Source: Chlorops oryzae
Lineage: Eukaryota > Arthropoda > Insecta > Diptera > Chloropidae
DNA length: 64,000 bases
Direction: 5' to 3'
NCBI GenBank assembly: GCA_020466095.1
Contig: CM035807.1
Coordinates: 50,806,752 to 50,870,751, forward strand
The notes under the pieces are model-generated. The model worked only from the letters and a program-made list of their open reading frames with translations, made no database searches and was not told the DNA's origin. Shown piece after piece: positions 18,211 through 35,450 of the stretch. Made by a program: the position numbers and the translations under genes. Positions within the stretch are counted from its first letter, which is position 1. Every line of letters begins with the position of its first letter.

Positions 18211-19293
18211 CCATGCTCTTTTATTATATTTCTTTTATTATTTTTGCTTACAATTCCTTTCTAGAAGAAAGAGAATAAAAATTCTAACTTTCCAGTATTT
18301 TTTTTAGTTCGCGATTGTCACAATTTATGCTTTTTTTTCACAATTGAAAATCTCGTACTTACAAAAAACAATTTTTACGTCCGAATTCGCTGAACTTTGC
18401 CTTTGAAATGACGCAGCTTAAAAACGAAATGTGCTAGAGCCATATGGTGAAAAGCAAAAACAAAGCGCAAAGTCTGTTTGACAGTTTGAAAAAAGCGCGG
18501 TTAAAATCAGATGTTTTCTTATAACTTCTTTGTTTTCCAACCGATTTGGAAGAAATTTGGTTTTCTAATAACGTTAAATATATGTTTATCATTTTTAGTT
18601 ACCGAAAAAAATTAAAAAAAATTTTTTTTTACTTAAAAGTTAAAATAAAATTTTGAAAATTCAAAAAACCCAAAAAAGTCAACTTTTTTCAAGTTTAAAT
18701 GCCTATAGCTCAAAAACTAAGAAACCGATTGTAACAAATGATATATCGTTGCAAAGGGGAAAGTTTTCTGCTTCATGCTGATAAAATTTTATTTTATTTA
18801 GACAAGCCGTTTTGGAGTTATTTGGCAAAATTTCATTAAGTAACCAAAAAACACGTTTTTTGCCCATATCTCAAAAACTATTCTTTGGAAAAAAAACGGA
18901 TGCCATTTTCGTGATCAGCGACCCCAATTTAGTCTAAAAACCATCATTTCGTCTCTGCTCTTTTTTTTTGTAAACTAGTGTAATCATCAACCACCAATGT
19001 TCAAAAATAATCACAAAAGAGGTTACATTTCTTTTCACAACGCACTGTAGGAGAAATAACATGATTTTCGATATATAAATCTATCGAATATTCGATACTA
19101 AGTCAGTATCGAGACTTGTATTGTATAAATCGATTTTTTCTCGATTTAGGCATTGATGATGTTGGTACGCGTGCCAACAAACCAGGCGGGAAATTCGATT
19201 CCCACGAATTAAACAAATTTTCGAAGTTTCCGCAAAAATTTGCCGCCCCTCAGATCTTGCCGCTCTAGGCGACTGCCTACAATGCCTGCATGG
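18211..19293. other. hAT 5' interior, non-coding
   Basis: AT-rich sequence with words such as CTCAAAAACTA repeated near 18708 and 18871, and an ATCGATATTCGAT-rich patch near 19070-19140. No coding region, and it probably includes the transposase promoter side of the element. Confidence 0.5.
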
Positions 19294-19307
19294 TAAATCC
19301 GGGCCTG

Positions 19308-20432
19308 GGGGCCGAGCGCAGACGGCAAAAGTTCTACGTCTCTAAAGGACTGTGCCTTGACGAAGCCAAAAGGCTGGCTAAGCTGCCAATGGCTGAGGGA
19401 AAGAAAGAGATGGCACTGTCTCTACAAGCGGCGAAGAAAAGGGACCGATCTGAGGGCTCATTCACTACGCCACCACAGAACACCCCCAAGAGGCAGATGG
19501 GACCGCCCGACGTGAGGTCCGAAGCTGGAAAGCACCCGGGAACACTAGTTGCACCAGCAAAGGAGCCCAAAGCCTCTAAGGTGGTGAAGTCGGCTAGCGC
19601 AGCGGGCATCAGGATGGGGATTATGCCGTCGGACTATCCCCATACCACCTGGTCCACGCAGCAGCTCTCCCAAGTACAGGGAGCCATCCTGGACAGAGTG
19701 CGTCAATTGAAATCGGGCTCAATGAAGCCCTCCTTCAATGGATGTGCTTTCAGACCAGGATGGTTGTCTGTAATCTGTTCGGGTCCTGAGACGGCAAACT
19801 GGCTTAAGGTCAACCTAGGAGCCTTATCGCCGTGGAAGGACGCCAAACTCAAACTTGTGGAGGAGAAGGACATCCCTCGTCCACAAATATTTATAGGATA
19901 TTTCCTAGAGAGGCAGACAACCTCCAACGAAGATATCCTATCTTTAGTCCAAGGCCAAAACACCGGCCTAAGGGTCGCAGACTGGCGGGTGCTCAACAGG
20001 GCGCACAAAGGTGCCTCAATAGAGCTAACGCTGTCAATGGACCCTATCTCAGCCAAAAACCTGACTGAGATGGACTACAAGATAAACTACGGCTTTGGCA
20101 GGGCGAAGATTCACCCGAAAACCAAGGCCGTAGCAAGCGGTGGTGATGCTGTCCCAAAGGCATCCGAAGAGCGACCTAGTTGCTCACGGGAAGCCCAGAG
20201 CTCGGGAACAAATACAGCTCCAGCATCACAGGAGAGCGCAGGACGTAACCGTCCCCCTCCAACATTCACCCCATCTTCACCGGCTCCCATCGCCAAGCCC
20301 TTTCTACGCCCACCTGTGAACCCATACCCAGGGCGTAGAGGGCAAGGGCGAGGTAGGACACAGGAAGAAAGAGTGATGGCATCCGGTAGGAGCAAGAAGG
20401 TCGCTAAACGCGCCTTCAAGGTCACGGAGTGA
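19308..20432 (+). pseudogene. LOA ORF1, main part (DUF4780-like)
   Basis: This is the body of the LOA ORF1 protein. The frame starts inside the hAT end, so the real coding part begins at about 19308. It runs from GAERRRQKFYVSKG through a conserved region of about 170 residues (YPHTTWSTQQLSQVQ, FRPGWLSVICSGPETANWL, DWRVLNRAHKG) that resembles DUF4780 proteins of insect elements. A Pro/Ser-rich linker and a basic C-terminus follow. No zinc knuckle was seen. The stop codon TGA (20430-20432) is followed two bases later by the ORF2 ATG, which suggests termination-reinitiation. Confidence 0.75.
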
Positions 20433-20434
20433 CC

Positions 20435-22275
20435 ATGCTCCCAAGAAAAATCAAGGCCATACAAGTGAACCTCCACCATGCAAAGGCGTCCTCGGATGTC
20501 CTAAGCAGGAGGTTCACAAAAGAGGGACTGGACATAGCACTTGTCCAGGAACCCTGGGTTCACGGTGGGACCGTCAAAGGCCTCAACCTTCGCGATGGTA
20601 AGTTAATACTTGCCAAAAATCACTGCAGACCTAGAACTGCAATCATCATAAGGAACAAAATTAACTTTCTTCTCATTTCAGAGCTTTTTTCACAGGATCT
20701 GGTGGCAGTAATTGCAAAGATCCCTACGCTCAGGGGAGAACAAGAGGTGGTGCTAGCGTCGGCCTACCTTCCTGGAGACAGCGATCTAATACCCACAAGG
20801 GAACTATTGACCCTAGAGGAGTACTGCAGAAGGAGGAACCTCAAATGGCTAGTCGGTTGTGATGCAAATGCCCATCACACGACATGGGGTAGCACCGACA
20901 TCAATTTAAGGGGTGAGTCATTATTAGAATATATTATTAGTAAAAACATAAATATTCTAATCCGGGGTAGCGAGCCGACATTTGTTAATGTCACAAGGGG
21001 AGAGGTCCTTGACTTAACTCTCTCCAGTCATAACTTGTTGTCTGTTATCTCAAACTGGCACGTCTCAAAAGAAGTCTCTATGTCAGATCATAAACATATT
21101 ATGTTCGACATAGATGCTCCTACAGAGGAGTTCCAAGTTTACCGTAACCCAAAGAAAACCAATTGGGAAAATTTCCGCTTCTGTGTAGAACAGAAGATAA
21201 ACTGCTCAGATAGTGCGATTAATTCGACCTATGAGCTTGAGACAGAAGCTAAACTTCTGCAGAGTAGTCTCAAACAAGCGTTCGAGAAGAGCTGCCCGCA
21301 GAAAGCCAAAAAGGCGCAAAGGGACGTCCCCTGGTGGAACAAAACACTTGAGAAGCTCAGGTGTAGCACCAGGAAGCTCTTCAATAGGGCAAAGCGAACA
21401 GGCGACTGGACCGCCTATAAGGCAGCCCTTACAGAATACAATAAAGAATTGAGAAAATCCAGAAGGGCCACATGGAGGGAACACTGCAGCAGAGTGTCAA
21501 ATCTCCCTGATATGTATCGCCTCCAAAAGGCTCTTGCGATGGGTCACTCAAACGGCCTCGGTACCCTCAGGAGGCCAGATGGTAGTTTTACGTCAACGAT
21601 CCGTGAGACAGGAAGACTCTTGTTGAAAACTCACTTCCCTGGCTGCGTTCCTGCGTTTGAACGTCCTTGCCAAACAGCTGGCATAACAAATGCAGCAAAT
21701 GGTAGAGCCAGAAGTCTTGCGGGGAAAATTATTATCTCCCATACGGTACAGTGGGCAATTTCAACTTTCAGCCCATATAAATCGCCGGGCCCGGACGGCA
21801 TCCGCCCATGCCTGCTTCAGCAGGGTAATGGGCTTATTACAACTCCACTGGTGAGAATATTTAAAGCCAGCTTATTAATGGCTCATATTCCATCAAACTG
21901 GAACGAGGTGAATGTAGTGTTCATTCCCAAACTGGGGAAAACAAATGAACACAGTCCTAAGGCCTTCAGGCCTATAAGCCTCAGTTCCTTTTTCATTAAA
22001 ACAATGGAAAAACTCATTGATCAGTACATAAGACGAGACTGTCTGAAGTACCAACCACTGAACAAACAACAATTTGCCTACCAACCTGGTAAATCAACTG
22101 TGACTGCCATACACAGCCTCACTACTATAATAGAAAAGGCTATACTGGCAAAGCAAATAGCCCTCTGTGCATTTATAGACATCTCGGGGGCTTTCGATAA
22201 CACCTCTTTCGAAGCTATCGAAACAGCCATGTACCAAAAAACTATCCCACCCCTAATAGCTAATTGGATACTAAA
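20435..22275 (+). pseudogene. LOA ORF2: endonuclease and first half of RT
   Basis: This is the first part of the LOA polyprotein that nicks the target and reverse-transcribes the RNA. The first ATG is at 20435 in TGACCATG. The apurinic-like endonuclease spans about 20450-21110, with VNLHHAK, LVQEPW, GCDANAHHTTWGS and the SDHKHI histidine motif. RT begins near 21740 (SPGPDGI, KAFRPISLSS) and reaches the first catalytic Asp block CAFIDISGAFDN near 22165. The mariner inserted at 22278 within the RT. This portion is uninterrupted. Confidence 0.85.
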
Positions 22276-22277
22276 TA

Positions 22278-23565
22278 TTAGGTGTAGTAAAAAGAAATCC
22301 ATTATTTTTCCAATAGATGGCGTTATTTATCTGCATCTCGCGTTGTATAAGTCCGATCGTGTTCCGCTACGGGTCATTAGAAAGATGACAGTTCCTACTA
22401 AAAAAGCTTTTTTGACACTTTTTTGATTGATTGATTCAGTTTTGTTTGAGAGCTTGTCAAAGATGGACATCAGCAAAGAGAAAATTCGCTACATTTTACA
22501 GTTGTTCTTCGATAAGGGAGAAAACGCAAGCCAGGCGGCTGAAAATGTGAATAGCGTTTATGGACCTGATACTGTAACAGCCAATCATGCGCAATTTTGG
22601 TTTCGTCGATTCCGTTCCGGTAACTTCGATGTCAAGGATGCACCACGCACTGGAAGGCCAATTGTCGAAAATGTCGATAAAATCATGGAAATTATCGAGT
22701 CCGACCGTCATGTTAGCACTGTTTCGATTGCAAAAGAGCTAAAGATTGCACAAAAAACCGTTTGGAACCATTTGAATAAGGCTGGATACACAAAGAAGCT
22801 CGATGTATGGGTGCCACACGAGTTAACGCAAAAAAACCTCATAGACCGAATTTCCATCTGCGAATCGCTGCTGAACCGCAACAAAATCGACCCATTTCTG
22901 AAGCGGTTGGTGACTGGTGATGAAAAGTGGGTCACTTACGACAACGTCAAGCGAAAACGGTCGTGGTCGAAACACGGTGAACCGGCGGAAACGGTGGCCA
23001 AGCCAGGATTGACGGCCAGGAAGGTTTTGCTGTGTGTTTGGTGGGATTGGCAGGGAATTATCTACTATGAGCTGCTCCCATACGGCAAAACTCTTAACTC
23101 GGAACTCTACAGTCAACAATTGGACCGTCTGAAGGAAGCAATCGCCCATAAGCGGCCAGCTTTGGCCAATAGGAGATGAATTGTGTTCCATCAGGACAAC
23201 GCCAGGCCACACACATCGATAGTGACTCGCCAGAAGCTCCGGGAGTTTGGTTGGGAGGTTCTTCTGCATCCACCTTATAGTCCGGACCTGGCACCAAGTG
23301 ATTACCATCTGTTCCTGTCCATGGCGAACAATTTTGCTGGTGAAACATTCGCTTCAAGAGAGGCTTCTGAAATTCGACTGTCTCAATTTTTTGCTAATAG
23401 GAACGAGGGCTTCTATGAGAGAGGCATAATGAAATTACCTTTAAAATGGCAACAAGTTATCGAACAAAACGGCGCATATTTGACCTAAATCGGGTCATTC
23501 TAACTATCTTAAATAAAGCCCTCAATTTAATGCAAAAATAATGGATTTCTTTTTACTACACCTAA
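22278..23565 (+). mobile_element. mariner element (irritans/Himar-like)
   Basis: This 1,288-bp element has about 32-bp terminal inverted repeats starting TTAGGTGTAGTAAAAAG, identical between the two ends as far as read, and a TA duplication (22276-22277, 23566-23567). Removing it restores the LOA RT frame. The size and structure are those of a full-length mariner. Confidence 0.95.
22463..23488 (+). pseudogene. mariner transposase with one stop codon
   Basis: This is a cut-and-paste transposase of the mariner family, close to Himar/irritans in sequence. The first ATG in context is 22463 (MDISKEKIRYIL). The N-terminal paired-type DNA-binding region has helix-turn-helix motifs (ENASQAAENV, STVSIAKELKIAQKTVWNHL). 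The DDD catalytic residues are visible in VTGDEKWVTY (about 22913), FHQDNARPHT (about 23193) and YSPDLAPSDYHLF (about 23280). One in-frame TGA at 23177-23179 interrupts it, and everything after it is open to the TAA at 23488. Otherwise it is intact. Confidence 0.92.
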
Positions 23566-23567
23566 TA

Positions 23568-24717
23568 TATTGAAAAACAGGAAAATATCCACTGAATTAG
23601 GAGGTGAAAATCAGTCGATCAATGCAGCTAGAGGTTGTCCTCAAGGCGGAGTACTTTCTCCGCTACTATGGATACTAGTCATTGACGATCTCCTCAACCA
23701 CCTTCAAGAGCAGGGATTTGCAGCGCAGGGCTATGCAGATGACCTCGTCATTTGTGTAGCCGGTTGGGATGACATTACCATCACATCTCGCATGCAAACG
23801 GCCCTTCAACTGGTAACAAACTGGTGTGATGAAAAGGGTCTCACTGTTCAGACGAACAAAACAAAGCTAGTGCCCTTTACTAAAAGGACTAAGACCAATC
23901 TCTTTAGTCCCACAATTCTGGGCAACTACATTCAATTCAGCGATGAAGCCTCCACTCTGGGAGTGATCCTAGACAGAAGGCTGAGCTGGAACTCGCACCT
24001 AGACCATGTTGTCAGCAAAGCCTCAAAGGCGCTTTATGTGTGCCAAAGGCTCCATGGCAAGACGTGGGGAATTTCCCCACGAATGGCATATTGGTCTTTC
24101 ACTACGATTGTTAGACCAATAATTACTTATGCTGCCTTTGTATGGTGGCCAAAGGTCGGACAAAGGACCGTGGAAGCTAAACTGGGCAAGCTACACAGAC
24201 TAGTGTGTGGGAGCATCACAGGGGCAATGAAAACCTGCCCCACAGATGCACTGGGTGTCATCACCGGCATCCCCCCTCTCACTATCCAAATTCAGAGAGA
24301 GGCATGTGCAACCGCTTTAAGATTGCACAAAGTCCTAAATCTCAAAAGTGGGGATTTTCAAGGGCACCTCTCGATATTGTTGAATGTATCTGAGGACCCA
24401 ATAATGAAGATGCCAGACCGAATACAACGTATATTGCGTTTTGATTGCAAGTACAAGGTAATAATTCCTGAACGAAGTGAATTCAAAAACGTCTTACTTC
24501 ACATAGAGAAAGGATCACAAATCTGATACACAGATGGATCCAAACTTGAAAATGGAAGTACAGGTGCAGGCATCTTGGGACCTAGATTCCAGAAAGCAGT
24601 ACCAATGGGTCTATACCCAACCATATTTCAGGCAGAATTATATGCGATTGAAATCTGTGTCCGCGAATGTCTGGAGAGGAAGACAAAGGGGAGCAGTATC
24701 CATATAATGTCTGATAG
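23568..24717 (+). pseudogene. LOA ORF2: second half of RT and start of RNase H
   Basis: This continues the LOA polyprotein after the mariner. It contains the RT block GCPQGGVLSPLLW (about 23633), the catalytic YADD in AQGYADDLVICV (about 23726) and the thumb region (LGVILDRRLSWNSHL, about 23955). An in-frame TGA at 24523-24525 lies just before the RNase H start YTDGSKLENGS, a single lesion. RNase H is then interrupted at 24717 by provirus G. Confidence 0.85.
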
Positions 24718-25301
24718 TGTTGTGAGTTTCCCAACATTGTGATAGGTCAAACGGGCGATCTTGCAATTATTTATGTTTATCGCGCGGTGAACGAGCATAT
24801 CAGCATTATGACCAAGAATATTGGAATAGGTCAGAAACTCGAGAAGGCAATGGCTTACGCTCGCAGTGCCGTTCGCTGTTCGCTTACGCCCGCAGCGCTG
24901 TTCGCTGAGACTGAGCAAGCAAATGGTCGTTTTGGCCAAAAATGCAAGCACGCATTTTAACGGTGTTCAGAACAGCACGCGCGATAATTGTGCAATACAG
25001 ATGGCCAAATTAGCACACCAAATATGCTAAATCAAGTGTATGTTGCAATAACAATGTCGAAAGAGCAAAAGATGTCGCAAGAACGATTTCGACATCACAG
25101 GCAGAGAACAGCCGACAGCAGCAGATAAACAACTATAAAAGATTCGTTCGAACTCCAATCGGGAGTTGGTATTTTTTCGTCTTCGATTACATTAACAACG
25201 CCGTATAGTGTTTAAGATTGTTTATCAATAAAGTATGAGTATATAATAACGAAAATTCCTGCGTTTCTTATTTTCACCAGACAAGGAAGAGACACCTAAC
25301 A
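24718..25301 (+). repeat. 5' LTR of provirus G
   Basis: This LTR runs TG to CA. TATAAAAG at 25135-25142 and an initiator-like AGTT about 25 bp later mark the promoter. AATAAA at 25228-25233 is the candidate poly(A) signal. GTTCGCTG/CCCGCAG repeats lie near 24870-24905. The only difference from the 3' LTR that I found is C versus G in the GATTCGTTCGAAC/GATTGGTTCGAAC word. Confidence 0.95.
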
Positions 25302-25303
25302 TT

Positions 25304-25320
25304 TGGCGCAGCCGGTTAAC
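25304..25320 (+). promoter_or_regulatory. Primer binding site of provirus G
   Basis: TGGCGCAGCCGGTTAAC lies two bases after the LTR. The TGGCGCAG core fits the 3' end of a tRNA with CCA, tRNA-Ser-like as in related insect elements, with weaker match beyond. Elements A and D share TTGGCGCAGC-type sites. Confidence 0.75.
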
Positions 25321-25467
25321 CAGATCACGTTCTATAACAGTATCCGGTAAGGACCTAAATAAATTAAGGAAGTTCTGTCTGTTTCTGGTGATTCCTAGAG
25401 ACGAGGGTCCTGGATAAATTACAGACATCGAATCGCATTATCTGCTTTAAGTGGACAGACGCTATAG

Positions 25468-27204
25468 CAGGCCCAAGTGTTTAATACCAGGGAAGAGGAG
25501 TTCGATATCCTTTTAGAAAATATCGCGAAATCGTCGGAACCTTCTAAGAGCGCAGAAAGAGAATTAGAAAAGCTGCAAGAGGCGAATAAACTGCTAAAAG
25601 CAAAAATTAAACAATTGAAAAATTCACTGCAACAATCAGACACCGTGTTGGTAGAGCAACAGGCTGAGCTAGAGAAGCTGAAGGCTGGGTCGGAGAGCAA
25701 AGGACAAGTTTCTGACAGGGTATCGGAGGAAGAGCGAACAATCGAGCGTCAAAGAGAGCAGATTAAGCTCCTCAAACAGAAGCTGAACCAAGTAACTAAG
25801 GAAGAAACTACAAATATGAACCCGCAAGATAATCCTATTAAGACATCGATTTCGAACGAAAATAGACAAGCACTGCCGACACCACCACCACCACCCCCGC
25901 AGTTAACAAATCATCAAACACCATCTAGTATAGCTAACGAGATCCAAGCTTTAATACATACACACCCGGCGACCACCTCACTGCCCGCGCAACAACAGTC
26001 GCCGTTGAGAGGATTTAAAGAAAAGCAAACATTGCTGCATCCGTCCTTACGACCACCTCAACAGAATATAACGCCTCAAACGTCGATTGGGAGTTTTTGG
26101 GAGGACGAATTGACAAATCTGCAACCACAGCTGTTAGTTAACAGTATTAGCAATCCGAAAATACCACTCACTAAGATATTGGAGCTAGTGAATCGATGCG
26201 TTCCTTTTTTCTCTGGAACAGAGGGTCCGGAGCTGAGCGTTGACTTGAAAAAACTTGTCGCAGGATGCCAGATTCTCAAAAACACGTTGAAGAATAGCGA
26301 TCAAAGAGAAGCGGCAAATTGTGTGAAAGAGCGACTCCTGGGCGACGCATATAGCAGGCTAGGCGACCGAGTTTTCTCAAGCATCGACGAAGTATGCGAA
26401 CTTTTGAAATCTCTTTATACTCGAAGAAGGGAGCTGGAAGATATAAGAGAGGAATTGGCAGCATGCAGGCAAGGCATCAAGGAAACTGTTCGTCAATTTG
26501 GAACTAGAATTGAGGGCTTGCTGGAGGAAGTTAGAAAAGAGGTTAACGAGCCACATGGGAAAAGCAGATTGATGGTATTTTTCCAGGATCTGGCTGTTAG
26601 AACATTTATTGCAGGACTCAAATCTCAAGCATTAAGGAACCTCTGCATTGGAAGAGAAAATAACTCATTGGGTCAACTGGTAGAAGCAATAGAAAAAGGC
26701 CAAAGATACCATATAATAGATGAAGGCAGTGTAAATATGGTGAAGGCAACTGAAAGCGAAATAAACGTTTGCTCGTTCTGCAAAAGGGGAGGACATTTTT
26801 ATGCAAACTGCACGACTCGATTGAACACGCCATTCTGCAAGGCATGTGAGACCTACGGCCATGAGGAAGTTTACAAGTGCCGAAAAGAAACCTCCAATTT
26901 CGAAACACGCATAGATCAGCAGAACAAAAGGCCAAAATGCGATTTCTGTCATACAATGAGGCATACGGATAAAGAGTGTCGTAAAAGACTAAAATCGCTC
27001 TACTGCAAGGTTTGTGAAAGCCCAGGGCACGTGGAGAATGTGTTCTGCAGAAAGACTTTAATGCCTCCTGAAGGGTCGGCTCAGCCCAGAAGGCCGGGGG
27101 TATTAATATGTTTCGAGTGCAAGCAAGAAGGACATATAGCTCGAAACTGCCCCAGACGAACGGGAGCTCCACAGGGAAACTCCCATGCCCCCAGTCAACA
27201 CTAA
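25468..27204 (+). CDS. gag: Gag polyprotein of provirus G
   Basis: This is the structural protein forming the particle and binding RNA. The frame is open from just after a TAG at 25465-25467. No ATG occurs before the coiled-coil segment, and the first in-frame ATG is near 25816. The start is therefore uncertain: non-AUG initiation, loss of the ATG, or an undetected upstream exon. It reads a long coiled coil (about 25490-25800), a Pro-rich linker, the capsid-like core (VPFFSG near 26199; DEVCELLKSLYTRR near 26390), then five zinc knuckles at about 26770, 26836, 26938, 27004 and 27111. The knuckles alternate C2C4H4C and C2C4H5C. The stop is TAA 27202-27204. Confidence 0.88.
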   Translation, partial: QAQVFNTREEEFDILLENIAKSSEPSKSAERELEKLQEANKLLKAKIKQLKNSLQQSDTVLVEQQAELEKLKAGSESKGQVSDRVSEEERTIERQREQIKLLKQKLNQVTKEETTNMNPQDNPIKTSISNENRQALPTPPPPPPQLTNHQTPSSIANEIQALIHTHPATTSLPAQQQSPLRGFKEKQTLLHPSLRPPQQNITPQTSIGSFWEDELTNLQPQLLVNSISNPKIPLTKILELVNRCVPFFSGTEGPELSVDLKKLVAGCQILKNTLKNSDQREAANCVKERLLGDAYSRLGDRVFSSIDEVCELLKSLYTRRRELEDIREELAACRQGIKETVRQFGTRIEGLLEEVRKEVNEPHGKSRLMVFFQDLAVRTFIAGLKSQALRNLCIGRENNSLGQLVEAIEKGQRYHIIDEGSVNMVKATESEINVCSFCKRGGHFYANCTTRLNTPFCKACETYGHEEVYKCRKETSNFETRIDQQNKRPKCDFCHTMRHTDKECRKRLKSLYCKVCESPGHVENVFCRKTLMPPEGSAQPRRPGVLICFECKQEGHIARNCPRRTGAPQGNSHAPSQH

Positions 27205-27217
27205 GGGGCTGGGGGGC
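27174..27217 (+). promoter_or_regulatory. -1 ribosomal frameshift signal (gag to pol)
   Basis: GGGAAAC at 27174-27180 sits in the gag frame as G GGA AAC, a canonical X XXY YYZ slippery site. Six bases later GCCCCCAG (27187-27194) can pair with CTGGGGG(G)C (27209-27217), giving a strong stem of at least seven pairs. The gag stop lies in its loop. Pol lies in the -1 frame and is open from upstream of the slip site. Confidence 0.8.
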
Positions 27218-30062
27218 ATTGCAGGGCGCCGAGCCTACGCCTGCATATGAAAGAAGAAAAGTAAACAATGGCTCAGAAGGAGATACTTCGAGAAGAGTTG
27301 ATGATAGTAAAGTCAACAATGGAGGAAAAAGGGTGAGGTTTAATGATAGAAAGGATGTATTAATCATTCCGAGAGGATATGAATCTAGAAAAGGACTGCG
27401 GCGATATGCACGAGGAGGTATATCAAAAGAATATTTGGCGAAATTGGAAAGAAATGAAAATTTTACTGTAACACGTTTAGATAGCGACGAGAGTGCCGAA
27501 GTAAATGACGCATTTGTACGGATACCCTGTAGGGAAGCCGTTAACAGTGAGCTCATTTTACTCGTGGACTCTGGCGCAGATTCTAGCCTTATAAAACTAA
27601 AATCCCTAAAAAAGGACACACCCATAGACACCAGCAAGCGCAAGGCGTTATCTGGCGCGTTCAGTGGGGAGATAATCACCGAGGGGTCAGTAAAAATTCA
27701 GCACGAAGAGGTGAAAAGGCTACAGCTGAGATTACATGCTGTCGAATTAAACCAAGGATTGCCTGCGGATGGCATCCTGGGGCGAGACGTTCTTTGGAAC
27801 CGTGCGTTAATTGATTCAGTTCAAAAGGAATTAATTTTTATTGACAATACACAGCAATTGTGTGTCCTCCAACTGCTGCCTAAACAAAGACAGAGGAACT
27901 TGTGCATGGTAATGGCAACTTCGGTTCCTGCGAGGTCGGTGAAAATAGTGCCATTACAATTTGAAATGGAAAACTCAACAGTAGTAGTAGAAAAACGGGA
28001 ATTAAGTACAAATATATTCATTGGAGGCGCGATCACAGAAGTACGCCATGGCATCGGATATGTGCCCGTGCTAAACGCCAGCGAGCAGGATATAGACATA
28101 GGGGCCACAAGAGAAATCCCATTTTCAGACATAAAAGATTTCACGCAGAACGGAAGCCCCAACATAAATATGGCACAAAGCCACGAAGGCAACCATAGGA
28201 TACTTAAACTGTTGGAAACAGTAATAACAGACGAAAATTTAAATAAGGAGGAGAAGGAGTCAATAGAGCGTATTGTTGAGGAATTCCAAGACGTGTTTCA
28301 GTTGGATGAAGAACCCCTTACACAAACCAAAGTCCTTACTCACGAAATACCAACTCTACCAGGAGTGGCACCTATAAATAGACGTCAGTACAGGTTGCCA
28401 GAGGCGCACAAAGCAGAGGTAGGCAAACAGGTACAGCAAATGCTGGAACAAGATGTGCTTGCACCTAGCGTATCTCCCTGGAATTCTCCAATCATTCTAG
28501 TCCCGAAAAAGGCAGGACCGAGCGGCGAGAAAAAATGGAGATTAGTTGTCGATTTCAGGTCACTTAATGAAAAAACGTTGAAGACAGTTTTCCCAATTCC
28601 ACGCATCGATGAAATCTTGGACCAATTGGGATACAGTCGATATTTTTCAACTCTCGATTTGGCCAGCGGCTATCATCAAGTCCTCGTAGACCCAAAAGAC
28701 AGAGAGAAAACAGCTTTCAGCACTGGAACAGGGCACTACGAGTTCAAGCGTAAGCCATTCGGATTGTGCGGAGCACCAGCCACGTTCCAACGTATTATGA
28801 ATACGGTACTCACAGGTCTACAGGGTATGGACTGTTTCGTATATTTGGACGACGTGGTAGTGTATGGCAGAAGCCTTGAACAACACGAAGAACGACTGAA
28901 ACGAGTGCTTTCTGCGCTTAGAGAAAATAACTTGAAGTTGAAAACGGAAAAATGCCAATTTTTAAGACGAGAAGTGGTATACTTGGGCCATAAATGCTCC
29001 GAAACAGGTGTCCTGCCGGATCCTGGTAGAGTGAAATGCATAGAATCCATTAAAGTGCCGAAGAATGTTAAGGAGCTCCAGTCATTTTTGGGCTTGGTCA
29101 ATTACTACAGAAAATTCATTCCTAACACTGCAAAGCTCGCGCTCCCGCTCAACAACCTACTCAAAAAGGGCGTTAAATTTGAATGGAACGAGTCTTGTCA
29201 GGTAGCCATGGAAACTTTGAAAGCAGCAATTATTAATCCACCAATTTTAAGATACGTCGATTTTTCGAAACCATTGTTGCTAACGACGGATGCAAGCGGC
29301 GGAGCTTTTGGTGCGGTGCTTTCACAAGAAGATTCAGGGAAGGACTATCCTGTTTATTTTGCAGGCAGATCTTTAAGCGACACCGAGCAACGAAACTCCA
29401 CCATCGAGAAGGAATTTTTGGCTATCGTATGGGCAACCAAAACATTTCGTTCCTACCTGCTGGGCAGGAAATTCACCGTGTTTACGGACCATAAGCCCCT
29501 CAAGGGGATAGCGAACCTGAAAGATCAAACTTCAAGGCTGGCACGTTTTCGACACAAACTCTCTGAGTACGATTTTGAGATTTGCTTTAAGCCAGGAAGG
29601 GAAAATCTAAATGCAGATGCTTTAAGCAGACTACCTCTGAAAATAGCGGTCATCACGAGAGCCGCAGCAAGGAACAACCCGAAAGAAGTAGCGGAGGGAC
29701 AACAGATTCAAAATCAGGAAAGCTTAGACGAAGATTGTAACGAGGATAATGCCCACGTAGACTCAGCACAATTTCTCACCAACCCTAAGGATATTGCTGA
29801 GGTCCTTCATAAATTTCATGATTCCCCTCTTGGAGGACACAGAGGGGCACTAAAAACGTTTTTCAGAATAAGGAGGCAATTTAAGTGGACGGGAATGCAG
29901 GCACAAATTAAGCAATATGTCCGCTCATGTCAGCTCTGCCAAAAGAACAAAAGTGGAAAAAACGACAAACAACCAATGGTGATCACGGACACAGCACATC
30001 GTCCTTTCGACAGAGTATTTCTAGATAGTCGGGCCCTTACCCATTTCTACAAATGGAAATAA
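27175..30062 (+). pseudogene. pol: Pol of provirus G: protease, RT, RNase H, integrase N-terminus
   Basis: This is the enzyme polyprotein reached by frameshift from gag. The frame is open from 27108, but functional use begins near 27180. An aspartic protease has DSG at about 27565 (LLVDSGADSSLI). RT includes DFRSLNEKT (about 28552), LDLASGYHQV (about 28655) and the catalytic YLDD at 28842-28853. RNase H starts at TTDASGGAFGAV (about 29284) and ends in ADALSRL. The integrase HHCC zinc region lies at about 29805-29945 (HDSPLGGH...CQLCQ). A frameshift near 30020-30030, just after the first catalytic Asp region, ends the frame at 30062. Confidence 0.9.
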
Positions 30063-30063
30063 G

Positions 30064-30880
30064 TATATCCTGACGTTTCAAGACGATTTTTCAAAATACA
30101 TGGCCTGCGTCGCAATAGCGGATGCGGAAACACATACAGTGGCAAGAGCCTTTTATGCGGAAATCATCGCCAGGTTTGGCATTCCCAGAATATTAGTCAC
30201 GGACAACGGAACCAACTTTACGTCGAATTTATTCAAAAACGTCTGCAAAATAATGGGAATCAAGAAGTTAAATACAAGCCCATACCATCCTCAAGCAAAC
30301 GGTGCCTTAGAGCGCAGCCACCGTCCACTGGCCGAATACCTGAGAAGTTTTTCAAACGAGGATGCCTCAAATTGGGATAGTTGGCTCTGTCGTGCAATGC
30401 ACGTGCATAATAACACGGTGCATACATCAACTAAACAATCACCAACGAGAATCCTTTTGGGATTCGACATCGATATTCCCACTAACTTAAAAGGGGACGC
30501 GAGTCCTTTATACAACTTTGACGACTACGACAAAATAATGAAATTTCAAATTCAGCGGTCACACGAGCTTGCCAGGAAGCACTTAATGATGGCAAAACAT
30601 CACGCAAAGGAGCGCTATGATAAGGGCAAAAGAGCAACAACATTTCGACCAGGAGAAAAGGTTCTTCTAAGAAATGAGACACGCAAGAAAAAATTTTCCC
30701 CATTATGGGAGGGACCTTATACAGTGACCAGTCAATGTGAAATTGTCCAATAAGGGAAAAGAGAAGGTCGTTCATCAAAATTTGGTCAAACGTTTCCACC
30801 AGCGTTTCCTAACGCATAAGTCGTCCAAGCGAAAACAAAATCCGCCCAACCTTGAGCTTAATTCTGTCCTAAAGAACTGA
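30064..30880 (+). pseudogene. Integrase core and C-terminus of provirus G, two frameshifts
   Basis: This is the rest of the integrase in another frame. It includes the second catalytic Asp (TDNGTNFTS, about 30199) and catalytic Glu (ALERSHRPLAEYL, about 30310), followed by a GPY/F-type module (FSPLWEGPYTV, about 30694). A second frameshift near 30735-30750 moves the basic C-terminal tail into a further frame, which closes at a TGA about 30880. With LTRs this similar, the two indels are either recent or assembly errors. Confidence 0.85.
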
Positions 30881-30975
30881 AAATTGATAAGCTTATTTAA
30901 AAATAAAATAAAGAATAATAAAAAAAAAAAAAATTTTTTTTTTAGAACGAATGACTGTAATATGAAGATTTTTTT

Positions 30976-32520
30976 ATGTTATTTATCGTAATGCAGAGGT
31001 TTTTGCAGAAACAGTTATATGAAAAAAAAAAAAAAAAAAAAAGAAATATATATAAAAACAAATTTCAGATTTCATTTCTAGGTTTCTGTTGCCTAATGTC
31101 GGTATCTGCAGCCTACCAGCACCTGTATATAGAGCGAATTGAGGCAAATTTGGGATTTGCGGAAGTAAACATGGGAACAGTCGAAGTGGTCTCGAGATTT
31201 GACTACATCCTTCACAAAGTCGATCCAGCGGAGATTAGGAATATACTCGACACATTCTTAGAAGCAGAAAAGGCGCTAGATAACTCCATCTACGACGGAA
31301 TAATTTCCGCCCAAGCAGAATCTATAAACTCGATATTGCACACACTAACTCCAAGCAGAATGAAGAGGGGATTATTTGACGGTATTGGTACCGGCATAAA
31401 GTGGGTTTTCGGTACAATGGATGCAAACGACAAACAAGCAATCGAAGAACACTTCGACGTCATCGATCGCAATAACCACAACCTCATCGAGAGGTCTAAC
31501 CAACAAATTCAGATTAACAATAATTTCAGAGACTCGATCCAAAAGATCAAAACCCTTGTCGAAAAGGATCAACGACACTTCGAAGATCTATATAAGAATT
31601 TCGTTAATCTTACCAATGAGCTAGTTGCAGATGAGATAGCGATTAGATTGCTTTTCAAAATTCAATTGTTGAAAAACCAGGCTGAAATAGTTCAGCAAAA
31701 CAAAGCCGCAGCCAGGACAGGCATACTCCACCCGGGCATATTATCCATAGAGGAAATAAAAAGGTTTAATATTGGGTTCGAGAAATTGAAGGGAATCTCC
31801 TTAGGCGTGGCAACGTACGACGAAAAAATTATTCTTTTCATTATGAAGGTCCCATCGGCAAACAAAACGGTCACTAAAATCCTAATTATCCCAGCACCGA
31901 ACCAACAACAGATGCAGATTAAGGCGGAAATTGAAACGGTAATAGAGATGGATAATATCACGTACTCATTTGAAGCAGGAAAATCAATTTTTGAACTAAA
32001 ACGAAGCCGGCACTGTGCTGTGACAGGAAAGTGTACCCTATATCGGAATGATAGACAAGAAGTCATAGAATTAGAAGATAATATCATTATCTTACTAAAC
32101 GGAAATAGTTCATTGCTAAATAGTACATGCGATTCCAGACGCATGCCTTTAACCGGAAATCTTCTGATATCCTTCGAAAATTGTACAGTGCAAATGGGGA
32201 AATTACGTTTCTCCTCACGTGTCATGGGCTACAAACAAATATTTGTTATTCCAAAGGGACGCAAACCAGTTCTTACAACCGATATCCCGAATTTCCAGGA
32301 TCTCGTTCTTAGCCAAGACGAGGCAACAAATGAAATCCAGGAGTTAAAATTCCATGGAAAGGTACAAAGTTTAACAGGGGTAGCTATTACAATATTTACC
32401 ACAGTGGCTTTGATAACCATATGCTGTTTGGTTAAACGAAGGAAATCATCGAAGAAGAGGGGGGAAAATGTAACCGAAGAAATAATCTCCAAATATAGTT
32501 CTACGCCTGAAAAAGCTTAA
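30976..32520 (+). CDS. env: Envelope glycoprotein of provirus G (baculovirus F-like)
   Basis: This intact 514-codon ORF lies in the errantivirus env position. Such proteins mediate membrane fusion and derive from the insect virus F-protein family. The ATG at 30976 is followed by a Lys-rich stretch and a hydrophobic signal-like segment (residues about 30-46). A basic cleavage-type site RMKR is at residues 128-131, with a Gly-rich hydrophobic fusion-peptide-like stretch after it. Several Asn-X-Ser/Thr sites occur. A transmembrane segment lies at residues about 463-485 with a short basic tail. A poly-pyrimidine tract ending in AG at about 30930-30945 could be the acceptor for a spliced env RNA. 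No stop or frameshift was seen. Confidence 0.88.
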   Translation: MLFIVMQRFLQKQLYEKKKKKKRNIYKNKFQISFLGFCCLMSVSAAYQHLYIERIEANLGFAEVNMGTVEVVSRFDYILHKVDPAEIRNILDTFLEAEKALDNSIYDGIISAQAESINSILHTLTPSRMKRGLFDGIGTGIKWVFGTMDANDKQAIEEHFDVIDRNNHNLIERSNQQIQINNNFRDSIQKIKTLVEKDQRHFEDLYKNFVNLTNELVADEIAIRLLFKIQLLKNQAEIVQQNKAAARTGILHPGILSIEEIKRFNIGFEKLKGISLGVATYDEKIILFIMKVPSANKTVTKILIIPAPNQQQMQIKAEIETVIEMDNITYSFEAGKSIFELKRSRHCAVTGKCTLYRNDRQEVIELEDNIIILLNGNSSLLNSTCDSRRMPLTGNLLISFENCTVQMGKLRFSSRVMGYKQIFVIPKGRKPVLTTDIPNFQDLVLSQDEATNEIQELKFHGKVQSLTGVAITIFTTVALITICCLVKRRKSSKKRGENVTEEIISKYSSTPEKA

Positions 32521-32574
32521 AGCGGAAAAGCCGCATAATCAAACACAATTTTTCTTTTTCTTTTCTTTTTCTCA

Positions 32575-32580
32575 TTTATT
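32575..32580 (-). terminator. Poly(A) signal of the antisense Ulp1-like gene
   Basis: Minus-strand AATAAA (plus TTTATT) lies about 32 bp past the stop codon of the antisense gene, in a region free of other coding sequence and convergent with the end of env. Confidence 0.6.
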
Positions 32581-32611
32581 TAGATATATAATTAACCTAA
32601 GGACAACAAAT

Positions 32612-33550
32612 TTAATTCCCTAGCCTTCGCACACTTTCGCATCCAAGACGAGATAGTTTAATAACGAAATAATCACCTAACAACTGCACGCGCTGCTTAC
32701 GGGTACTTCCTTTCGTCCACTTAGCACGAAGTCTCTCAAAGTAAGGAGCCAATGTCTCACGAGAGGGCAGAGAGGCTCTAGGCTGCCGTATAAATACATC
32801 GCGGGCTAACTGCAGAAGAAACGACCGCGTTATTTTGCTCTCCTCGGGACTAAACGAAGCATGGTGGGGCTGGAAGGATGCCCCTGTGGTCAAAGCAGTG
32901 GCAACTCGTTCAGCAAACATCACGATGAACAGGCCACAATCCGATCCATTCCGTTGCTGTGGACACGGGAGATATAGAGAGGCCATTGTACCCACCGAAT
33001 ACACCCTTTTGCCTATCCCAAAAACCTTATCGGCTTCCCGTTGTAGAAAATTTCGTAAACAGCTCGAGATTCCCACCGTGTCGTGGGGCTTAAGTGAATC
33101 CAAAATATATATTACGGGCCAGCTGATAACGGCCAACATCCAATGGTTGTTCTCCAAGAGGGGCACAACCAATACATCGTAACTAAAAATATTTACACGA
33201 CGTGTGCGACTGTCCAACTGCAGAGAAAGGTGAGGAGGGATGCCATCAGTGCAGCTATTCAACTGTTTCGTTAAAGGGTATAAATATGTATCGAATAAAT
33301 GCACACGGCAGGACGATGGTTTCAAACAATCGGTCAGAGCCCACCGCAGGAAAGCATTCACGTGGTTATCGCTAAACCACATCCCAGTGGAAAGACGTTG
33401 GACATCGGTTTCCGTAAGTTCGAGACTTCTCAAAACTGATCTTTTTCGAAGCTAAAATTAAGTAAAAGGGAGTTAATATGTCAGGAGGAACGTAACTAAA
33501 ACTAAGCTTACCATTGTGCGATTTTTTGGGGTTGAAACGGTAGAGTACAT
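32612..33550 (-). CDS. Ulp1/SENP-like (C48) cysteine protease, antisense in provirus G
   Basis: This is a predicted SUMO-type (or ubiquitin-like) protease. Exon 2 (33451-32612) has no ATG before LSTGMWF and is blocked upstream by an in-frame TAG. A 60-nt intron (33511-33452; GTAAGC...TTAATTTTAG) joins it in frame to exon 1, whose ATG is at 33550 (39 coding nt). The predicted protein is about 292 residues. The catalytic set of the family is complete: His in NNHWMLAVI, Asp in YILDSLKP, Gln in PCPQQ and Cys in NGSDCGLF. The CPQQ-x-NGSDCG pattern and the HW.LAVI..P spacing are closest to SENP6/7-type members (from memory). The gene is opposite to env and pol, directly after env, with its own poly(A) signal. 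It could be host-derived cargo or a nested insertion, but no TSD or terminal repeats were seen around it. Confidence 0.85.
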
Positions 33551-33746
33551 AAGTTTCTTTCAGGTGGAGGGATAAAACACAGAATACACGTTTTCAGACT
33601 GTCTACGAATGACTGACCCGATAATAAAAGCTAACCTACCAATAAAAGGCCAATTAACGTTTACCTTTGCACATTTTCGGCGTTGAATTTCAAGCGCAGT
33701 TCATTGAAACAAATATTTCAAAAAAAAAAAAAATAAATAAAATGAA

Positions 33747-33777
<31 letters not shown>

Positions 33778-34848
33778 TAATAAAAAGGGGAAATTCATGA
33801 CTTGACATTTTGAGGACGTGTTAAAATATGTTATATAGCTAGCAACTAACCTACTCACCTAAACTAACAATAACATTTTAATTTCACGCAAGGCACAGCT
33901 AAAAAAAAAAAAAAAAAAAAAAGCATTTGCCAATATACTTTTTCAAGTATATACGCACATGTTTAGACCAGATGAAGACCTTGTGACCAGGTAGAAAAAT
34001 TAATCAATGGTTATGTGTTATTTTCTCAAATCAAACTTCTCATAACCCAAACGTCATAAATATATATATACTAGAATCGAAGCAAGAAGAATTTCGGTAA
34101 CTTCAAGAAAACGATCAATGTCATTCAACTTTGTATTAAAATCATCTCAGTTAACTTTACAAGGCCAAAGTCAATTCGAAAAATGAACAAATATACGTAT
34201 GCTCAAACATTACATCCACAATCGAAACAAGAAGAATAAAACGATCAAGTTCTTTCAACTTTGAATCGAATTCAGCTCGGTTAACTTTGCAAAGTCAAAG
34301 TCAATTGGAGCAAACCAAAAGAAACACAAAGAAACAAAACAAAAACAATTGTTCCTATACGTAAATATAACTTTTGCGCTAATAATGAATTATTTAATGA
34401 AATGAAAATGCTAAGTAAGCGTTTCTGCATTCATGAAAAAACAAAAAGAGAGAAAGAAAAATAATAATACAAAAAAAAAAACCAACAAAAAAAAAACCAT
34501 ATGTTTAAGTTTTTAAAACGCTTTAAATTTTTAAGCACTTAGAGTTTTTAAGATATAAATTAAAAATTGTTTAAGATAAGTATCCCTAGAAAATAAGTCA
34601 ACGAATCCAGGAAACGGATACGATTATCTCGGCACCAGAGAACACCTTAACAACTAGGCGCTACTACACCAACACGAACAACGCAACTATCAAGGCCGCA
34701 CGGCTCTCTCTCCTGCCTTTCGGAAATGACTACTTCGGATTCATCGAAGGATAACTATGTCCCGTCTTGCACCTAGAACCCCAAGCAGAAGAAGAAGCTC
34801 ACACATTTCCTCAACACCGACTCCTAACCCCCTTAAAACATGTTCTTC
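33551..34848. other. Non-coding 3' region of provirus G
   Basis: A-rich sequence with poly(A) runs (33720, 33900, 34470), an (AT)n microsatellite at about 33747-33774, and two related 90-bp blocks near 34085-34175 and 34225-34310 (AATCGAAGCAAGAAGAAT / AATCGAAACAAGAAGAAT). It probably holds the promoter of the antisense gene on the minus strand. No coding region is convincing. Confidence 0.6.
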
Positions 34849-34862
34849 AAAAGGGGGAGGGA
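34849..34862 (+). promoter_or_regulatory. Polypurine tract of provirus G
   Basis: AAAAGGGGGAGGGA directly precedes the 3' LTR, as required for plus-strand DNA priming. Confidence 0.9.
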
Positions 34863-35446
34863 TGTTGTGAGTTTCCCAACATTGTGATAGGTCAAACGGG
34901 CGATCTTGCAATTATTTATGTTTATCGCGCGGTGAACGAGCATATCAGCATTATGACCAAGAATATTGGAATAGGTCAGAAACTCGAGAAGGCAATGGCT
35001 TACGCTCGCAGTGCCGTTCGCTGTTCGCTTACGCCCGCAGCGCTGTTCGCTGAGACTGAGCAAGCAAATGGTCGTTTTGGCCAAAAATGCAAGCACGCAT
35101 TTTAACGGTGTTCAGAACAGCACGCGCGATAATTGTGCAATACAGATGGCCAAATTAGCACACCAAATATGCTAAATCAAGTGTATGTTGCAATAACAAT
35201 GTCGAAAGAGCAAAAGATGTCGCAAGAACGATTTCGACATCACAGGCAGAGAACAGCCGACAGCAGCAGATAAACAACTATAAAAGATTGGTTCGAACTC
35301 CAATCGGGAGTTGGTATTTTTTCGTCTTCGATTACATTAACAACGCCGTATAGTGTTTAAGATTGTTTATCAATAAAGTATGAGTATATAATAACGAAAA
35401 TTCCTGCGTTTCTTATTTTCACCAGACAAGGAAGAGACACCTAACA
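34863..35446 (+). repeat. 3' LTR of provirus G
   Basis: This 584-bp copy of 24718-25301 differs by one base in my comparison. The ORF seen at 34767-35105 runs across the LTR edge and is not a gene. Confidence 0.95.
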
Positions 35447-35450
35447 ATAG

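What the first reader, a model, noticed from the sequence alone, without database searches (positions are those of the whole stretch)
32612..33550. Intron-containing Ulp1/SENP-like protease gene carried antisense inside a young errantivirus-like provirus
Seen: between the intact env and the 3' LTR of provirus G, on the opposite strand, there is a 292-codon gene with the full His-Asp-Gln-Cys set of C48 proteases (NNHWMLAVI, YILDSLKP, PCPQQ, NGSDCGLF). Exon 2 alone lacks an ATG and is blocked by TAG. A 60-nt intron (33511-33452) with a good donor and acceptor connects it in phase to an ATG at 33550. AATAAA lies 32 bp past the stop. Known: Ulp1/SENP proteases remove SUMO, and the SUMO pathway helps silence transposons in fly germlines. 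Inference: because the intron is antisense to the viral RNA it would survive retrotransposition, so the gene can travel as cargo with its own promoter and could counter SUMO-dependent silencing or process a viral protein. I know of no described insect LTR element with this arrangement. It would also explain the unusual 10.7-kb length.
Basis: partly seen in the sequence, partly recalled or inferred. Interest (0 to 1): 0.93.

Follow-up and report, generated by a model that had tools for sequence, protein, structure and literature searches.

The report
SUMO-protease gene inside retrovirus-like elements
A family of virus-like jumping elements in this genome carries a gene for an enzyme of the kind that strips the SUMO tag from proteins; in some elements the gene runs backwards with a conserved intron and in others forwards without one, so it looks like a lasting viral tool rather than a stray host gene.

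Summary
Confirmed and extended. The provirus (24718-35446) has 584-bp LTRs with one mismatch, a 4-bp duplication, gag, a broken pol and an open env. Downstream of env, antisense, lies a C48 (Ulp1/SENP) gene (Pfam 1e-16; nearest solved structure SENP7). It is not private: the genome search scored 139 matches. In 17 of 18 loci L009-L026 the gene is antisense to env; the 18th shows no env. In more distant lineages it is sense: after env (L027, L028, L057) or between integrase and env (L029-L031, L056). The intron recurs in 17 of 18 antisense genes, with the shared start codon directly before the donor (33514-33512), not at 33550; sense frames need no intron. Fourfold-site A/T skew follows the viral strand in both orientations (19 of 19, 5 of 5). 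Against the three more distant comparable loci dN/dS is 0.22-0.35. Catalytic His, Asp and Gln are kept in 27 of 27 loci, Cys in 25. So: a long-resident accessory gene under selection. Transcript, activity and target (SUMO-dependent silencing is my guess) are inferred; host and donor are unknown.

The parts
24714..24717 (.). target-site duplication ATAG, left copy
24718..25301 (+). 5' LTR, 584 bp, TG...CA
25304..25315 (+). primer-binding-site-like TGGCGCAGCCGG (primer tRNA not tested)
   Evidence: sequence; role recalled
25477..27204 (+). gag frame: zinc knuckle 3e-5, weak Retrotrans_gag 0.001 (below cut-off)
27108..30062 (+). pol: protease, reverse transcriptase, RNase H, integrase zinc domain; frame interrupted at its end
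30100..30753 (+). integrase core (PF00665 2.3e-8), in another frame than the rest of pol
30976..32520 (+). env (PF07253 Gypsy env 5.8e-18; PF12259 Baculo_F 4.8e-6)
32575..32580 (-). AATAAA behind the antisense gene
32612..33451 (-). exon 2 of the Ulp1/SENP-like gene, 279 codons plus stop; residues H103, D118, Q165, C172
33452..33511 (-). 60-nt intron GTAAGC...TTTTAG, same place in other antisense subfamilies
33512..33514 (-). shared start codon ATG at the end of exon 1
33551..34862 (.). noncoding 3' region, presumed to hold the antisense promoter (not tested); matched in the close copies
34849..34862 (+). polypurine tract AAAAGGGGGAGGGA before the 3' LTR
   Evidence: sequence; role recalled
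34863..35446 (+). 3' LTR, 584 bp
35447..35450 (.). target-site duplication ATAG, right copy

Best explanation
The gene is a long-resident accessory gene of a group of env-bearing gypsy (errantivirus-like) elements, coding for a C48 cysteine protease of the SENP/Ulp type. SHOWN: protease family and conserved catalytic residues; presence in several insertions and several element lineages; three arrangements (antisense after env, with an intron behind the start codon; sense after env; sense between integrase and env); viral-strand base composition in either orientation; purifying selection between subfamilies. INFERRED: in the antisense lineage an mRNA is made from the opposite strand starting in the 3' region, spliced and polyadenylated near the short gap before env, and gives a protein of about 280 residues; because the intron is antisense to the genomic RNA it survives retrotransposition. 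INFERRED: the protein removes SUMO from host proteins, most likely silencing factors such as the Piwi-Panoramix machinery, and so eases repression of the element.
For: Family; profile of 8 members against PDB, best SENP7 2.2e-29. H103, D118, Q165 kept in 27 of 27 loci, C172 in 25 of 27. Spread: 139 scored matches, eight full-length ones at 96% or more, 5 of these 8 without a stop; a sense-type query scored 126 matches, 7 of them 99-100% identical over 314 open codons (4 of the 7 lie off the three large contigs and may be duplicate pieces of the assembly). Arrangement. Intron: 17 of 18 antisense genes (many are near-identical copies), in three subfamilies whose intron bodies differ. Strand skew: negative in 19 of 19 antisense loci, 5 of 19 at p<0.05 singly; positive in 5 of 5 sense loci, 4 of 5 at p<0.05; pooled representatives, 3 against 3 chosen by me, Fisher p=2.7e-11 (loci are related); host Brix gene -0.09, hAT -0.06. 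Selection: window against L016 dN/dS 0.22, L024 0.28, L017 0.35; L016 against L017 0.24; sense L029 against L030 0.07; pN/pS intervals below 1 in 9 of 9 pairs. Function lead: Panoramix needs SUMO to silence in fly ovarian somatic cells, where SUMO joined by a cleavable link is largely removed (PMC13195609, passages).
Against: No transcript, protein or activity data. dN/dS is higher in other pairs: 0.61 (L015) and 0.49 (L018) against the window, 0.54-1.03 for six young copies on 11-15 changes each, 0.93 for L016 with L024, 0.84 for L027 with L028; env of L016 and L024 gives 0.06 on near-saturated sites, so the protease gene is less constrained. RT and integrase of L027 and L028 do not share the A-rich skew (RT -0.22, -0.08; integrase +0.09, +0.11). 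In the L019 subfamily exon 2 itself begins with ATG, so splicing is not strictly needed there. In yeast the Nup84 complex restrains Ty1 transcription through Ulp1 tethered at the pore, so a deSUMOylase can also restrain an LTR element (PMC8585004, abstract). Sister env lineages seem to do without the gene: none within 5 kb of 38 of 39 env matches at 41-49% identity and 11 of 11 at 40% or less, none in L052-L054 (6.0-6.5 kb each). The host's own SENP genes could not be searched, so donor and number of captures are unknown.
Confidence: 0.55

Rival explanations
1. The protease acts on the element's own proteins: it removes SUMO from (or trims) Gag, integrase or Env, helping assembly, nuclear entry or integration, not host silencing.
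For: Sense lineages place it between integrase and env, next to structural genes, as an ordinary viral accessory gene would lie.
Against: Related env lineages without a detected gene persist. No cleavage or SUMO site was tested.
Confidence: 0.25
2. The enzyme has changed target and removes another ubiquitin-like tag, or ubiquitin, in antiviral signalling.
For: Some C48 proteases act on other ubiquitin-like proteins (recalled). Related pol proteins carry ubiquitin-hydrolase domains (P0013, P0081), so tag removal in general may be what is selected.
Against: By sequence the nearest structures are SUMO proteases (SENP7, SENP2, SENP1); SENP8, a NEDD8 protease (recalled), reaches only E=0.86 with the single sequence.
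Confidence: 0.1
3. A host SENP gene was captured and is carried without benefit.
For: LTR elements with captured genes are reported in rice and sorghum (PMC3726574, title and start of abstract in a listing). 3 of the 8 closest copies have a stop, and young copies give dN/dS of 0.54-1.03.
Against: Purifying selection between subfamilies, conserved catalytic residues, conserved intron, viral-strand composition in both orientations, seven near-identical open sense-type copies (with the assembly caveat).
Confidence: 0.04
4. What matters is the antisense RNA (regulation, or double-stranded RNA with env RNA); the protein is incidental.
For: Gene and env converge, with 98 bp between the matches in the intact close copies. 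Antisense transcripts without coding capacity are reported for other retroelements (PMC7264820, passages).
Against: The same protein family is kept in sense orientation in other lineages, and codons are under selection.
Confidence: 0.04

Closest known systems
Insect errantiviruses (gypsy-type Metaviridae with a Baculo-F/Gypsy env)
   Same: LTRs, gag, pol with integrase, env of Pfam family PF07253, 4-bp TSD.
   Different: An extra C48 protease gene after env (antisense or sense) or between integrase and env. Two recent papers on insect env-bearing gypsy elements hold neither the word SUMO nor Ulp1 in the main text (PMC13172572, PMC12992720; term search only).
Plant LTR elements with antisense extra ORFs between pol and the 3' LTR (Grande, RIRE2, Retand)
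   Same: An antisense gene between the viral genes and the 3' LTR, in Grande with its own promoter (PMC7264820, PMC11963269; passages).
   Different: Plants; roles unknown, in Retand mostly a Transposase_28 domain and no env-like sense ORF there; the word intron occurs in neither main text. Here a recognised enzyme with a conserved intron.
Bdelloid rotifer LTR elements with extra ORF3 (DEDDy, GDSL, coiled-coil, TM)
   Same: Extra captured ORFs beyond gag and pol (PMC5408684; passages).
   Different: No Ulp1, SENP or C48 in the main text (term search).
SENP/Ulp SUMO proteases (SENP7 nearest)
   Same: C48 domain with His-Asp-Gln-Cys.
   Different: Short protein with a C-terminal extension shared by element-borne genes of the three arrangements; carried by a retroelement.
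Antisense genes of deltaretroviruses (HBZ)
   Same: A gene read from the opposite strand of a provirus; mentioned in PMC11963269 (passages).
   Different: HBZ is a regulator, not a protease (recalled).

Membership tests
Errantivirus-type LTR retroelement | Near-identical LTRs and short target-site duplication | tested here: met
   584 bp, one mismatch, ATAG; seven LTR-paired copies with seven different 4-bp TSDs, of ten pairs read
Errantivirus-type LTR retroelement | gypsy-order pol (protease, RT, RNase H, integrase) | tested here: met
   frame interrupted in this copy
Errantivirus-type LTR retroelement | env of the Gypsy/Baculo-F type | tested here: met
   PF07253 5.8e-18, PF12259 4.8e-6
Errantivirus-type LTR retroelement | Placement in an RT tree with named errantiviruses | not tested
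   no named reference sequences were aligned
Peptidase C48 (Ulp1/SENP) | Family profile match | tested here: met
   1e-16, above cut-off; 7 of 7 relatives scanned above cut-off
Peptidase C48 (Ulp1/SENP) | Catalytic His, Asp, Gln, Cys | tested here: met
   H, D, Q in 27 of 27 loci, C in 25 of 27
Peptidase C48 (Ulp1/SENP) | SENP fold | tested here: inconclusive
   single-sequence model of mean pLDDT 35.9 is unusable
Peptidase C48 (Ulp1/SENP) | SUMO isopeptidase activity | not testable with these tools
   needs enzyme assay
Antisense accessory gene of an LTR element | Gene on the opposite strand between viral genes and 3' LTR, in several insertions | tested here: met
   17 of 18 loci L009-L026; the 18th without env match
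Antisense accessory gene of an LTR element | Antisense transcript from its own promoter | not testable with these tools
   no RNA data at hand

The most novel reading that the evidence does not exclude
Errantivirus-like elements have a swappable accessory slot filled with enzymes that erase host protein tags (SUMO proteases here; tyrosine phosphatase, ubiquitin hydrolases and a macro domain in related elements or pol proteins). The SUMO protease counters SUMO-dependent piRNA silencing, and in one lineage it was inverted and runs as an independent, spliced antisense gene whose intron survives each round of retrotransposition.
Probability: 0.4. Interest if true: 0.95.

Novelty: new variant of a known kind. 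Interest (0 to 1): 0.86.

Why it matters
Invertebrate env-bearing retroelements are mostly described as gag-pol-env with host defence acting on them (recalled); a conserved tag-removing enzyme would be a counter-defence or accessory gene like those of vertebrate retroviruses, and would make the role of SUMO in transposon silencing testable from the element's side. The same gene in both orientations also gives natural evidence on how antisense genes with introns persist in retroelements and on the strand-biased base composition of such genomes.

Tried and rejected
Private insertion of a host gene or nested transposon into this copy: rejected, the gene lies at the same place in other copies. No convincing terminal repeats were seen around it; of 42 inverted pairs 25 were shown, the long-range ones A/T-rich, such as 32548-32570 with 34440-34462. 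Chance frame: rejected by the profile match. Relatives elsewhere: none at E<=10 among 1227 candidates of 5.8 billion proteins (the length filter leaves out long SENPs), none confirmed in IMG/VR with the single protein, env, RT or alignments, only matches of E 7 and worse in phages. Search of the host's own SENP genes (PF02902): not completed. Search with the sense-lineage env: not completed.

Full report
1. The thing itself. Exon 2 of the finding is an open frame of 279 codons plus stop at 32612-33451 on the minus strand. It matches Peptidase_C48 at 1e-16 and, among solved structures, SENP7 best (4.3e-16), then SENP1 and SENP2. The provirus around it runs from 24718 to 35446: two 584-bp LTRs (TG...CA) with one mismatch, a primer-site-like stretch, a polypurine tract and the duplication ATAG. 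It sits in a LINE: with the flanks joined, minus one ATAG, a frame that I read as RNase H-like (by eye, not by a search) runs across the junction, with one stop some 60 codons upstream. gag, pol and env are as expected for a gypsy element with env, but the pol frame of this copy is interrupted between its zinc domain and the integrase core.

2. It is not private. The window lies in a 442-Mb genome of 1044 contigs, three of them 173, 118 and 97 Mb. The genome search with exon 2 scored 139 matches of 720 candidates; the tool calls its counts lower bounds. Eight are full length at 96% identity or more, five of these eight without a stop. The LTR search found 42 matches. I read the flanks of ten LTR-paired elements, the window's included: seven show a 4-bp duplication, all different (ATAG, TATC, GAGC, CCAT, AGAC, GGTT, GCAC; the flanks of the AGAC copy are themselves repetitive); three do not at the ends I read (84769027 on C3, and two short elements near 59.34 Mb on C1 whose flanks are identical to each other). 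The TATC copy lacks most of the gene because a deletion joins the start of env to the 5' part of the gene (L050); the GCAC copy holds a remnant, residues 2-92.

3. Three arrangements. I fetched 20 loci from the top of the match list, leaving out fragments and one near neighbour. 17 of L009-L026 show the gene downstream of env on the opposite strand (L021 shows no env); L027 and L028 show it after env on the same strand. Of six loci picked from the lower matches, L029, L030, L031 and L056 have it on the same strand between integrase and env; L055 has integrase then the gene, same strand, with no env matched in the 0.9 kb left; L057 has env then the gene, same strand. By coordinates alone, env matches at 57% identity or more have an antisense gene downstream in 22 of 28 cases, none in 6, never sense; at 50-56%: 5 sense, 1 antisense, 3 none of 9; at 41-49%: 1 sense, 38 none of 39; at 40% or less: none in 11 of 11. 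Only 28 of the 139 gene matches have one of these 87 env matches within 5 kb; the env of the sense lineage is too distant (29-32%) to be in that list, and my search for it did not complete. One element can give two env matches. A second gene search from the sense lineage scored 126 of 799 candidates, seven at 99-100% identity with 314 open codons; four of the seven lie off the three large contigs and may be duplicate pieces of the assembly, and only one of them (L029) was checked for its neighbours.

4. The intron. In 17 of 18 antisense genes examined the place corresponding to 33511-33452 reads ATG, GT......AG (L024 does not; the matches of L020 and L025 start later and were not examined; L021 counts as antisense by kinship). 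Many of these are near-identical copies; the independent part is three subfamilies (window type, L016, L019 type) with different intron bodies. The donor is GTAAGC, GTAAGT or, in L017, GTACGC. The ATG before the donor is the shared one; the ATG at 33550 is absent from L016, L017, L019, L021-L023 and L026, and in L015 runs into a stop. I therefore place the start at 33514-33512. In the L019 subfamily exon 2 also begins with ATG, so there the intron is kept although not strictly needed. The sense-lineage frames of L029, L030, L031, L055, L056 and L057 are open from an upstream ATG through the catalytic core; L027 and L028 run on in one frame across that region with one stop each, at different places.

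5. Residence and selection. At fourfold sites the coding strand of the protease gene is T-rich in 19 of 19 antisense loci (skew -0.15 to -0.38; 5 of 19 at p<0.05 singly) and A-rich in 5 of 5 sense loci tested (+0.30 to +0.51; 4 of 5 at p<0.05); L055-L057 were not in this test. env is A-rich in all 23 rows, though not each significantly; RT and integrase of L027 and L028 are near neutral. Related copies are not independent; pooled over three representatives of each kind, chosen by me, Fisher p is 2.7e-11. A host Brix gene and a hAT gene in the window are near zero (-0.09, -0.06). So the gene seems to have long shared the viral genome's mutation bias, whichever way it lies. dN/dS is 0.22 (L016), 0.28 (L024) and 0.35 (L017) against the window, 0.24 between L016 and L017, 0.27 and 0.43 between L015 and L016 or L017, 0.07 between L029 and L030; 0.61 (L015) and 0.49 (L018) against the window; 0.54-1.03 for six young copies on 11-15 changes each; 0.93 for L016 with L024, 0.84 for L027 with L028, 0.40-0.78 within the L019 subfamily; for L019-L023 and L025-L031 against the window synonymous sites are saturated. 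env of L016 and L024 gives 0.06 on near-saturated sites, so the protease gene is less constrained than env. Bootstrap intervals of pN/pS lie below 1 for the nine pairs tested, young copies not among them. The catalytic His, Asp and Gln are kept in 27 of 27 loci, Cys in 25 of 27, the Trp after His in 25 of 27. The eight genes aligned, of all three arrangements, share conserved positions beyond the catalytic core, though L031 is cut short there. In the gene tree the antisense genes are split from all sense genes with support 0.98; the tree is unrooted, so one flip suffices but its direction is open. For env, L027/L028 join L052/L053 (0.89); for integrase they fall among sense-lineage elements (weakly, 0.78), which points to recombination.

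6. Mechanism. Shown: family, residues, arrangement, intron, selection. Inferred: transcription from the opposite strand, splicing, polyadenylation (a signal in 9 of 12 antisense loci, 0 of 2 sense ones), and deSUMOylation of host proteins. The best-founded target is the Piwi-Panoramix step, since Panoramix needs SUMO to silence in ovarian somatic cells, where SUMO joined by a cleavable link is largely removed (PMC13195609, passages). Against a simple rule stands yeast, where Ulp1 tethered at the pore restrains Ty1 (PMC8585004, abstract).

7. What is known. [quoted passage not shown] passages) and extra ORFs in rotifers (PMC5408684; passages). In the listings (no paper), 26, 27, 33, 69, 73, 85 and 117 I saw no errantivirus with a SUMO protease; the listings were read, capped at 8-20 papers each, not the papers, and most subscription papers are not held. 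PMC13172572 and PMC12992720 hold neither SUMO nor Ulp1 in the main text. Hence: a new variant of a known kind (LTR element with an accessory gene), with an unusual enzyme, orientation and intron.

8. A wider pattern, only glimpsed. The L027 frame after integrase carries a protein tyrosine phosphatase (4.3e-71). Of the 120 pol relatives listed I scanned six, five of them picked for unusual domains: P0003 has a tyrosine phosphatase (4e-68), P0013 and P0081 ubiquitin hydrolases (2.7e-33, 2.5e-37), P0059 a macro domain (1.4e-5), P0020 a weak herpes-tegument match below cut-off (0.0011); P0002 has none. Their sources are unnamed. Phosphate, ubiquitin, ADP-ribose and SUMO are all tags on host proteins.

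Noticed in passing
L027:7514-8989 (minus): Errantivirus-like element with a protein tyrosine phosphatase after integrase (PF00102 4.3e-71, motif HCAAGIGRT) besides its sense SUMO-protease gene.
   Followed up: partly
P0003, P0013, P0081, P0059 (scanned): Pol proteins related to the window's carry tyrosine phosphatase, ubiquitin-hydrolase or macro domains; unnamed sources.
   Followed up: partly
L016, L024 against window: Synonymous divergence of the protease gene (0.91, 0.87) is far below that of env (2.69, 2.63) and of RT and integrase of L024 (2.83, 2.11): exchange of the 3' part between families, or extra constraint.
   Followed up: no
L052:1072-1992: Open frame of 307 codons between integrase and env of a lineage without a detected SUMO-protease gene; no Pfam match.
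   Followed up: partly
L031:3456-5468: The protease frame runs on into env as one 671-codon frame in this copy, apparently through a deletion.
   Followed up: no
L014 (C3:72248651-72251797): Two copies of the gene with the 3' region in tandem in one provirus.
   Followed up: no
window 19290-24717 and 35447 on: LINE with a DUF4780 ORF1 (2.3e-48), endonuclease and RT, interrupted by a segment with 56-bp inverted ends (22275-22330, 23513-23568) and by the provirus.
   Followed up: partly
C1:84466924-84475125: Three copies of the sense gene at 3-4 kb spacing; L056 shows RT, integrase, gene, env and then RT again: tandem or nested elements.
   Followed up: no
window 33562-33573: Copy of the polypurine-tract sequence (11 of 12 bases) just upstream of the antisense gene; may be chance.
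   Followed up: no
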